The notes beneath the pieces were generated by a model that worked only from the letters and a program-made list of their open reading frames with translations, had not been told where the DNA came from and did no database searches. 64,000 bases of DNA, taken from positions 620,001 to 684,000 of the forward strand of contig NZ_FOIS01000001.1 in assembly GCF_900110455.1 (NCBI RefSeq), given 5' to 3'. The stretch's first letter is position 1. Every line of letters starts with the position of its first letter. The position numbers and the translations under genes were made by a program. Positions 7,635 to 53,945 of the stretch are shown piece after piece. This stretch comes from Natrinema salifodinae (GTDB taxonomy: Archaea; Halobacteriota; Halobacteria; Halobacteriales; Natrialbaceae).

Positions 7635-8111
7635 GTGAGCGTCAACATCGATAGTCGCGTCGTCGCGCCGGGGAGCGACGACTTCGTCGACGATGCCTGG
7701 GAGCTGAAAGAGGAGATCCGTCGACAGGAGGGCGTACTCAAGCAGCGGTACGACTTCTTCACCGACGCGTACCGGCGGTCGAAGGTCCACTGTTACGTTC
7801 AAGACGGCGGACTGGTCGGGTTCGCAGCCGTGCGACGCGACGGATATATTCTCTTTCTGGCGGTCTCCCCCGGGTTCCGCGGCGAAGGCATCGGCAAGCG
7901 CCTCGTCGCCCGCGTCGCCGACGACCACGACACGATCACCTGCCACGCCCGGACGAGCAACGAGAACGCCCTCCAGTTCTACGAACACCTCGGGTTCGAG
8001 ATCAAGCGCCGAATCGACAACTACTACGAGGACGGCGGCGACGCCTACTATCTCAAACTCGGCTCGGACGTCGGAATCACCGACAAGATTTCGGACCTGA
8101 TGCGGCGGTGA
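7635..8111 (+). CDS. GNAT N-acetyltransferase (RimI/Ard1-like)
   Basis: This protein of about 158 residues has the GNAT fold. Its central acetyl-CoA binding motif A appears as LAVSPGFRGEGIGKRLV (Q/R-x-x-G-x-G/A), and motif B as NENALQFYEHLGF. Archaeal members of this subgroup acetylate protein N-termini (Ard1/RimI-like), but other amine substrates are possible. There is no signal peptide. Two in-frame GTG codons (7629, 7635) compete for the start; the TATA box at 7604-7611 favours 7635. It is divergent from archease. Confidence 0.85.
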   Translation: MSVNIDSRVVAPGSDDFVDDAWELKEEIRRQEGVLKQRYDFFTDAYRRSKVHCYVQDGGLVGFAAVRRDGYILFLAVSPGFRGEGIGKRLVARVADDHDTITCHARTSNENALQFYEHLGFEIKRRIDNYYEDGGDAYYLKLGSDVGITDKISDLMRR

Positions 8112-51796: not shown

Positions 51797-52057
51797 TCAG
51801 GCGGAAGGTTCGAGATCTTTCGCGTCGAGATCGCCCTCGAGATAGGCGTGGCCGTCGTCGGTGATCGTGTAATAGCCGTCGTCAACCTTCTCTACGAGAC
51901 CGTACTCGATGAGAACGCGGAGCCGTTCGTGAACCGTACTTTGTGATTTATCAATATTCCTCGCAATAGCGGTCGGTCCGATCTCCAACCCTTTGTCGAG
52001 AGCTTCGAGAATGAGATTATCCGTGGGGAGTTGCATCCATTCTCCCGGTTTTCTCAT
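51797..52057 (-). CDS. Small winged-helix DNA-binding protein
   Basis: This 86-residue single-domain regulator has the helix-turn-helix LEIGPTAIARNIDKSQSTVHERLRVLIEYGLVEK followed by the wing YYTITDDGHAYLEG and a short acidic tail. It resembles the PhiH1-like/MarR-like small repressors common in haloarchaeal mobile and regulatory loci. The second Met (52057) is 25-26 nt from an ACTAAATG TATA box (52079-52086). The 324 bp upstream lead to the RuvC/TnpB-like gene on the other strand and include a palindrome (52119-52138). Confidence 0.8.
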   Translation of the reverse strand: MRKPGEWMQLPTDNLILEALDKGLEIGPTAIARNIDKSQSTVHERLRVLIEYGLVEKVDDGYYTITDDGHAYLEGDLDAKDLEPSA

Positions 52058-52118
52058 CACCGTTGAAAGGGTGAATCGACATTTAGTTGGTTCGAATACG
52101 CCCGTTTGTCGTACAGTA

Positions 52119-52232: not shown

Positions 52233-52261
52233 GCGGACCGGTGCTAGAGCCACTGGTCCGC
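52233..52261 (+). ncRNA. Leader hairpin 1 (possible structured RNA)
   Basis: GCGGACC (52233-52239) pairs perfectly with GGTCCGC (52255-52261), and GTG/CAC can pair inside the loop. Together with hairpin 2 it forms a structured leader in front of the RuvC/TnpB-like gene. An independent RNA product is only inferred. Confidence 0.4.
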
Positions 52262-52308
52262 GCGGCTCGCGTAGCTATGGGACGCAAGCCATGTCCGACG
52301 ACACGTCA

Positions 52309-52327
52309 CGGGGCCTTGAAAGCCCCG
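52309..52327 (+). ncRNA. Leader hairpin 2 (possible structured RNA)
   Basis: CGGGGC and GCCCCG form a 6-bp GC stem around a 7-nt loop (CTTGAAA), 57 nt before the ATG at 52385. Confidence 0.4.
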
Positions 52328-52384
52328 ACACGAGAGTCGCATCGCTCCGCTTTGATCACCTCGACGCCGCTCGCGACGATCACG

Positions 52385-53068
52385 ATGGCTAACCGCAACG
52401 AAACCCCGATCGGCGTTGACATCGGCGAGTACAACCTCTATACGGCCTGCCCGACCGCCCTCCCAGACTGGCGGGGCGCGTTCGCGATCCCCGGCGACGA
52501 CCTCTGCCGGCGCCTCGACGTCCTCCGGCGCCAGGCCGCCGCCTTGCTCGCCAGCGGTTTCGATCGGGACCCGATCGCCGCCCACGTCCGGCAGCGCCGC
52601 GACGCCCTCGTCGCGGACCTCGACGCCGCGGCCCGCGAAATCTGCGAGTACGCGTCCGCCTACGACGATCCGGTGCTGGTCACCGAAGACAGCCACTACC
52701 GGCCGGACCTGTGGGCGTGGCTGATCGACCCCGACGCCCACCGCGGCTCGTCGTGGCTGCTCCCCGCGGCGCACCTGCGGCTGCGAGCCGTCGCCGCCGA
52801 GTACGAAATTCCGGCGGCGACGGTGCCCGAAGCGTACTCCACGCAGGAGTGTCACGCCTGCGGCGTGCTCGGCGACCGGGAGCAGAATACGCTCCTCCGA
52901 TGCGACAATCCGGCCTGTCGCGTCGACGCCGTCGGCGCCGATTTCAACGCCGCGACGGTCCTCGCCAGGCGCTACTTCCCCGGCCGGTGCTGTGACTACC
53001 GGCCACGCGATCCGTCCGGGACCGACGATCGACCGGTGCTCGCCGCCAACGGCGCCCCTTCGGACTGA
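52385..53068 (+). CDS. RuvC/zinc-ribbon protein resembling the C-terminal half of TnpB
   Basis: This 227-residue protein has the three RuvC motifs of TnpB/Cas12-type nucleases in order. They are IGVDIGEYNLY (D12), PVLVTEDSHY (E101) and DAVGADFNAATVLARR (D186, the D-x-N-A-A form). A zinc ribbon lies between the last two (C156, C159, C173, C178; AYSTQECHACG, RCDNPACRV). The ~170-residue wedge/REC part at the N-terminus of full TnpB is missing, yet all catalytic residues remain. No TnpA gene and no transposon ends were recognised. It may be a domesticated or degenerate IS605-type protein; a nuclease guided or regulated by the adjacent structured RNA is speculation. Confidence 0.72.
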   Translation: MANRNETPIGVDIGEYNLYTACPTALPDWRGAFAIPGDDLCRRLDVLRRQAAALLASGFDRDPIAAHVRQRRDALVADLDAAAREICEYASAYDDPVLVTEDSHYRPDLWAWLIDPDAHRGSSWLLPAAHLRLRAVAAEYEIPAATVPEAYSTQECHACGVLGDREQNTLLRCDNPACRVDAVGADFNAATVLARRYFPGRCCDYRPRDPSGTDDRPVLAANGAPSD

Positions 53069-53381: not shown

Positions 53382-53945
53382 CTACTCGAACTCGGCGGTG
53401 TCGCCGCGTCGGTAGCGGTCGACCCGGCGGTAGCCGTGGACGACGGCGTCGGGATCGAGTTCGATCTCGTACCGGCCGATGATGTCCTGCGTGTCCGGCA
53501 CGGCCCGGCGCTCGACGACCTCGACGATCGCGCGCCAGCCGTCGTCGGTCGGCGAAATCTCGCTGACGCCGTCGAACTCGTGGCCGATGAGTTCGCCGGC
53601 GGTCGACTTGACGGTTTTCCGGACCGTGAGGATGCCCGCGATTTCGTCCTGGTCGGTGTCGACGTCCGCGTCGACCGCCTCGGGATCGGTCCGCTCGTCG
53701 GCGGTCATGTCGACCGATCCGCTCGACGCCGATGCGTCGGCACCCTCGGCCTGGTCGTCCGGCTGCTCCTGCTCGGCCTGTTCCTCCTGTTTCTCCTGTT
53801 CGGTTGCTTGACTGTCGCTCACTGTCGGATCACTCTCGTCGTGTTGGTAGCAGAAGCCGTCGTCTCGGGCCGGCCGCGAGCAGCGCTCTCCGTCCGCGGT
53901 GAGGGCTTTGCACTGCTCTCGTGACTGGCTGTCGGCTTCGGCCAT
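53382..53945 (-). CDS. gvpO: Gas vesicle protein GvpO
   Basis: GvpO is one of the proteins required for gas vesicle formation in haloarchaea. The 187-residue protein has a small Cys/His motif at the N-terminus (CKALTADGERCSRPARDDGFCYQH) that looks like a zinc knuckle. An acidic Gln/Glu-rich linker (about 40-95) follows, then the conserved GvpO domain (about 100-180; ILTVRKTVKSTAGELIGHEFDGVSEI, GWRAIVEVVERRAVPDTQDIIGRYEIELD). It ends the leftward gvpA-N-O operon, 52 bp after gvpN. Confidence 0.93.
   Translation of the reverse strand: MAEADSQSREQCKALTADGERCSRPARDDGFCYQHDESDPTVSDSQATEQEKQEEQAEQEQPDDQAEGADASASSGSVDMTADERTDPEAVDADVDTDQDEIAGILTVRKTVKSTAGELIGHEFDGVSEISPTDDGWRAIVEVVERRAVPDTQDIIGRYEIELDPDAVVHGYRRVDRYRRGDTAEFE

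What the first reader, a model, noticed from the sequence alone, without database searches (positions are those of the whole stretch)
52385..53068. RuvC and zinc-ribbon core of TnpB standing alone with all catalytic residues
D12, E101, D186 and four zinc cysteines are kept, but the whole N-terminal guide/DNA-binding half of TnpB is absent. Dead TnpB pseudogenes usually lose catalytic motifs; exapted ones (TldR-like) lose the nuclease. This one did the reverse, suggesting a mini-nuclease put to a cellular use or a new partner supplying the missing part.
Basis: partly seen in the sequence, partly recalled or inferred. Interest (0 to 1): 0.7.

Follow-up and report, generated by a model that had tools for sequence, protein, structure and literature searches.

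The report
TnpB nuclease half, kept without guide half
Salt-loving archaea carry a family of proteins that consist only of the DNA-cutting half of the RNA-guided enzyme TnpB, with its active site intact, and in one branch of the family the gene is joined to genes resembling CRISPR RNA-binding proteins, which suggests that an RNA-guided cutter was taken apart and its blade reused.

Summary
Window 52385-53068 (+) encodes 227 aa holding only the TnpB/Cas12f RuvC and zinc-finger (TNB) domains. D12/E101/D186 and C156/C159/C173/C178 are present; the WED/REC half is absent. It is not a fresh truncation. Thirty-two same-length relatives in Natrialbaceae (about 54-76% identity) keep all seven residues, with pairwise dN/dS about 0.3. 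A second, distant subfamily (~210 aa, other haloarchaeal families and plasmids) joins them in one clade (support 100/99) nested among full-length haloarchaeal TnpBs, so the N-terminal half was probably lost once. AlphaFold2 predicts a complete RuvC/TNB fold (pLDDT 84.8; Z about 16 to Cas12f). Nothing resembling an omegaRNA or an N-terminal TnpB half is linked to it. Context suggests mobile-element early operons: 32 of 33 loci have a divergent phiH1-repressor-like gene, 24 of 26 non-gvp loci a downstream coiled-coil gene. The window copy belongs to a Natrinema lineage beside gas-vesicle genes, intact in 7 of 10 genomes. Subfamily 2 follows a private 105-aa gene (9 of 9), and about eight loci abut HRAMP Cas7/Cas5-like genes. 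Best reading: a nuclease-only TnpB derivative targeted, if at all, in trans. Activity and partners are inferred, not shown.

The parts
52385..53068 (+). standalone RuvC + TNB zinc-finger protein, 227 aa (subfamily 1, Natrinema gvp-linked clade A)
   Evidence: ORF; PF07282; AF2 model pLDDT 84.8, Z 15-17 to Cas12f C-terminal halves; 33-member alignment
52418..52420 (+). RuvC-I catalytic Asp, D12
   Evidence: invariant in 33/33 subfamily 1 and in the alignment with 40 viral-contig TnpBs
52685..52687 (+). RuvC-II catalytic Glu, E101
52850..52918 (+). TNB zinc finger, C156-x2-C159 ... C173-x4-C178
52940..52942 (+). RuvC-III catalytic Asp, D186 (ADFNAA)
51797..52060 (-). divergent phiH1-repressor-like winged-helix regulator, 86-87 aa
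   Evidence: winged-helix matches in Pfam; a homologue matches phrog_2440 at 1e-23; divergent neighbour in 32/33 loci; only 11 copies in the 4.27 Mb genome
52291..52392 (+). 33-aa leader ORF MSDDTSRGLESPD..., whose stop overlaps the RuvC start (ATGGCTAA)
   Evidence: the same leader begins many unrelated first genes; in frame with RuvC in two Natrinema species
52310..52326 (.). palindrome GGGGCCTTGAAAGCCCC inside the leader, kept by paired changes in relatives (GGGAC...GTCCC)
   Evidence: repeat copies in relatives
53382..53945 (-). gvpO, convergent neighbour that marks the syntenic site in Natrinema

Best explanation
The protein is a nuclease-only derivative of a haloarchaeal TnpB. An ancestor lost the WED/REC lobe, which reads the TAM and holds part of the omegaRNA, while the RuvC active site and zinc finger stayed under selection. 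It most likely cuts DNA with a metal-dependent RuvC site. It can no longer find a target by the TnpB route; where targeting exists it is supplied in trans by proteins encoded beside it (subfamily 2: a private 105-aa protein, and in several loci HRAMP Cas7/Cas5-like proteins; subfamily 1 on plasmids: perhaps a coiled-coil protein). Expression is probably governed by the divergent phiH1-like repressor of mobile-element early operons, so the likely role is conflict between elements or element upkeep. Shown: sequence, conservation, phylogeny, gene linkage; predicted: fold. Inferred: nuclease activity, partners, repression, biological role.
For: All seven catalytic/zinc residues invariant in 33 same-length members; median dN/dS 0.28-0.33 at median dS 0.35-0.77 by NG86. 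Single clade with subfamily 2, support 100/99, nested inside haloarchaeal TnpBs when diverse viral-contig TnpBs are added; truncated TnpBs scatter instead. AF2 model with a complete RuvC/TNB fold, Z 15-17 to Cas12f residues from about 217-320 to the C terminus. No sign of an omegaRNA: synonymous variation is not suppressed at the 3' end of the gene, the gap to gvpO is only 18 bp in one relative, no Rfam match. No linked TnpB N-terminal half in about 50 loci. Divergent winged-helix gene in 32/33 loci and coiled-coil gene downstream in 24/26 clade B loci. Subfamily 2: the 105-aa gene directly upstream in 9/9 strong matches; Cas7-like (PADLOC Csm3 9e-5, PF03787 0.01) and Cas5-like (PADLOC Cmr3 7e-8) genes downstream in about eight loci.
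Against: No biochemical evidence of cutting. The window's genome has neither the coiled-coil gene nor an HRAMP Cas7, so no partner is identified for this copy. The Natrinema lineage is broken in 3 of 10 genomes. Linked loci share ancestry, so the counts are not independent. The AF2 alignment contained TnpBs and leans towards that fold; with 12 close homologues alone it failed (pLDDT 42.7). The clade sits on a long branch, so its exact place is less sure than its unity.
Confidence: 0.55

Rival explanations
1. A non-guided, structure-specific nuclease: the RuvC/TNB module alone recognises branched or single-stranded DNA, for example in replication or recombination of plasmids and proviruses, without any targeting partner.
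For: No candidate partner was found in the window's genome; the setting is plasmids and integrase-bearing element modules; RuvC resolvases are a precedent for the fold (a RuvC resolvase is a weak Foldseek match, E 0.018).
Against: The tight linkage to a private 105-aa gene and to Cas7/Cas5-like genes in subfamily 2 would be unexplained.
Confidence: 0.25
2. A DNA- or RNA-binding regulator: the zinc finger and RuvC surface bind nucleic acid and cutting is not used, in analogy to TldR.
For: Winged-helix neighbour and operon setting; TldR shows that TnpB-derived regulators exist (PMC13418256).
Against: TldRs lose the RuvC catalytic site and keep the guide/DNA-binding half; here the reverse holds in 33/33.
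Confidence: 0.1
3. A TnpB remnant on its way out, with catalytic residues kept only because the truncation is recent.
For: Broken copies in three Natrinema genomes; other haloarchaeal TnpBs truncated at the N terminus exist.
Against: Same length across many genera and dN/dS about 0.3, a separate clade, no N-terminal remnant.
Confidence: 0.04
4. A guide-dependent nuclease that borrows omegaRNA and the WED/REC function in trans from full-length TnpBs of the same cell.
For: The genome holds one TnpB with an open full-length frame and one that looks frameshifted; RuvC helices of TnpB contact omegaRNA (PMC10097598).
Against: The family is only 30-39% identical to full-length TnpBs, so interchange at the interface is doubtful; co-occurrence was not tested.
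Confidence: 0.06

Closest known systems
TnpB (ISDra2; haloarchaeal IS1341/ISH12-type)
   Same: RuvC D-E-D triad with the same spacing, TNB zinc finger, RNase H fold; the family nests among haloarchaeal TnpBs
   Different: WED and REC domains absent; no omegaRNA trace; its own conserved neighbours
Cas12f
   Same: Best structural matches, Z 15-17 over model residues 4-201
   Different: Cas12f has more than 200 further N-terminal residues and a CRISPR RNA; none here
TldR (TnpB-like nuclease-dead repressor)
   Same: TnpB derivative with new, non-transposon gene associations, in some cases in prophages (PMC13418256)
   Different: TldR loses the nuclease and keeps guide and DNA binding; this family does the opposite
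HRAMP (haloarchaeal RAMP, array-less CRISPR derivative)
   Same: Subfamily 2 sits directly before Cas7-like and Cas5-like genes in about eight loci; [quoted passage not shown] PMC8730458)
   Different: The window copy and the rest of subfamily 1 have no HRAMP genes nearby. The original 2019 HRAMP paper was not available, so whether a RuvC nuclease was listed there is unchecked

Membership tests
TnpB RNA-guided nuclease | RuvC catalytic triad D/E/D | tested here: met
TnpB RNA-guided nuclease | TNB four-cysteine zinc finger | tested here: met
   second pair is C-x4-C
TnpB RNA-guided nuclease | N-terminal WED/REC lobe | tested here: not met
   227 aa, profile aligns only to C-terminal parts of relatives; no linked N-terminal half
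TnpB RNA-guided nuclease | omegaRNA at the 3' end of the gene | tested here: inconclusive
   no synonymous suppression, 18-bp 3' gap in one relative, no Rfam match; no RNA data
TnpB RNA-guided nuclease | NCBIfam NF040570 score above its cut-off | tested here: not met
   28.2 bits against 100
TnpB RNA-guided nuclease | IS200/IS605 ends and TnpA | not tested
   no search for transposon ends or TnpA was run
TldR | inactivated RuvC site | tested here: not met
   active-site residues intact in 33/33
TldR | retained guide/DNA-binding half | tested here: not met
HRAMP | adjacent Cas7-like and Cas5-like genes | tested here: not met
   none in subfamily 1 loci, no Cas7 in own genome; met in part of subfamily 2
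Active RuvC nuclease | metal-dependent DNA cleavage | not testable with these tools
   needs biochemistry

The most novel reading that the evidence does not exclude
A class 2-type nuclease domain (TnpB RuvC/TNB) has been detached from its own guide apparatus and serves as the cutting subunit of a multi-protein, RAMP-based (class 1-like) RNA-guided complex in haloarchaea, with the private 105-aa protein as adaptor; the window subfamily is a sister branch using another targeting partner.
Probability: 0.25. Interest if true: 0.85.

Novelty: new variant of a known kind. Interest (0 to 1): 0.62.

Why it matters
Known descendants of TnpB either keep the whole guided machine (Cas12, Fanzor) or keep guiding and lose cutting (TldR). 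A clade that keeps only the cutting lobe, with an intact active site, would be a third outcome. It makes testable whether the RuvC/TNB lobe works without WED/REC, and whether nuclease and RNA-guided targeting modules can be exchanged between class 1-like and class 2-like systems.

Tried and rejected
Recent truncation: rejected by the same-length clade and the trees. Split TnpB with the N-terminal half as a neighbouring ORF: none found; the ORFs directly upstream in two plasmid loci carry zinc-ribbon or RHH/HTH features, not TnpB. Conserved DNA upstream, taken at first as a possible guide RNA: it is a leader ORF with a palindrome shared by many unrelated first genes. Viral contigs: no close relatives in three scans. 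First AF2 run with 12 homologues failed. Fold of the coiled-coil gene: only coiled-coil matches. The 2019 HRAMP paper and the 2023 TnpB diversity paper were not held.

Full report
Observation. The ORF 52385-53068 encodes 227 aa: RuvC-I with D12, a helical region, RuvC-II with E101, a four-cysteine zinc finger, and RuvC-III with D186. The spacing follows ISDra2 TnpB closely (PMC10097598). Pfam recognises the TNB domain; a profile of the family aligns only with the C-terminal parts of Cas12f/TnpB structures. With a 52-sequence alignment AF2 gives a confident complete fold (pLDDT 84.8, pTM 0.82) whose best matches are the RuvC/TNB parts of Cas12f (Z 15-17). That alignment included TnpBs; with close homologues alone the prediction failed.

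It is a family. In 392 Halobacteriales genomes 25 carry a match at E <= 1e-25, 24 of them in the window's own family; the 25th, G267, proved to belong to subfamily 2. Genome-contig hits name Natrinema, Halopiger, Natrarchaeobius, Natronolimnohabitans and Halobiforma. In 33 members of subfamily 1 (the window protein included) all seven catalytic and zinc residues are invariant, and median pairwise dN/dS is about 0.3 (NG86, a rough method). The next hits of the window protein are full-length TnpBs at roughly 30-39% identity.

A second subfamily. Haloferax gibbonsii plasmid pHG4 carries a 210-aa standalone homologue. With it as query, further members appear in several families. The two subfamilies form one clade (100/99) apart from haloarchaeal TnpBs, and with viral-contig TnpBs added the clade nests inside the haloarchaeal TnpBs (98/90 for the grouping with the TnpBs that include the halovirus ISH12-type copy L212). 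Eight N-terminally truncated TnpBs in the first tree instead sit singly next to full-length TnpBs. One loss of the N-terminal half in a haloarchaeal ancestor is the simplest reading; the branch is long, so the exact attachment is uncertain.

No guide in sight. No linked TnpB N-terminal half was found near about 50 standalone loci. Synonymous variation is highest, not lowest, at the end of the gene, and in one relative gvpO ends 18 bp after it. Rfam finds nothing. This argues against a classical omegaRNA but does not exclude an RNA.

Neighbours, subfamily 1. A divergent winged-helix gene stands upstream in 32 of 33 loci; the window genome has only 11 copies in 4.27 Mb, so this is far from random, though the loci are related. 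A homologue of it matches phrog_2440, a viral transcriptional regulator; the name phiH1-repressor-like is from my own knowledge of haloarchaeal annotation. Clade B loci have a coiled-coil gene of about 298 aa downstream in 24 of 26 cases; that gene is itself widespread and mostly occurs without RuvC. Clade A, to which the window belongs, sits beside gvpO-gvpN in Natrinema: seven intact copies (six with gvpO within the fetched region) and three broken ones. The same regulator-plus-leader module precedes integrase operons elsewhere, which points to early regions of mobile elements.

Neighbours, subfamily 2. A 105-aa gene directly precedes RuvC, in most cases overlapping or abutting it; all nine strong matches of this gene in 392 genomes lie before a subfamily 2 RuvC. 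In about eight loci the next genes are a Cas7-like and, in most, a Cas5-like RAMP protein, some of them truncated. The Cas7 homologue occurs in 91 of 392 genomes, mostly without RuvC, which fits HRAMP, described as having different nucleases (PMC12669027, PMC8730458). The window genome has no such Cas7.

Reading. The protein should work like the nuclease lobe of TnpB but is not a TnpB by the tests run: the WED/REC lobe is absent. I consider a functional nuclease whose targeting, if any, comes in trans the most likely explanation (0.55), and a self-sufficient structure-specific nuclease the next (0.25). Activity, partners and role are inference. I found no description of this clade in the papers that could be searched, but the most relevant HRAMP paper was not held, so novelty is provisional.

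Noticed in passing
window 52255-52345; L114-L133: A leader of about 90 bp with a 17-bp palindrome, encoding MSDD(N/T)SRGLESPD, begins the first gene of many unrelated operons next to phiH1-repressor-like wHTH genes; in some copies the palindrome is kept by paired base changes while the peptide changes.
   Followed up: partly
L158, L189-L197, L210: Subfamily 2 standalone RuvC following a private 105-aa gene and followed by HRAMP Cas7/Cas5-like genes.
   Followed up: partly
L045:9727-10620 and relatives: A protein of about 298 aa with an N-terminal coiled coil and a strongly conserved C-terminal domain of no known family, present in 88 of 125 Natrialbaceae genomes, up to 12 copies each.
   Followed up: partly
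L048:8998-11205: On Natrinema sp. DC36 plasmid unnamed5 the RuvC module is fused to about 500 further residues with zinc-finger-like motifs (735 aa).
   Followed up: no
L013, L015 around 7900-8010: In N. altunense and N. pallidum the leader peptide is in frame with RuvC, whereas in the window the two ORFs overlap in different frames.
   Followed up: no
own genome G000:C1:8937-9491 and G000:C3:794564-795146: One TnpB with an open full-length frame and one that appears frameshifted elsewhere in the window's genome.
   Followed up: no
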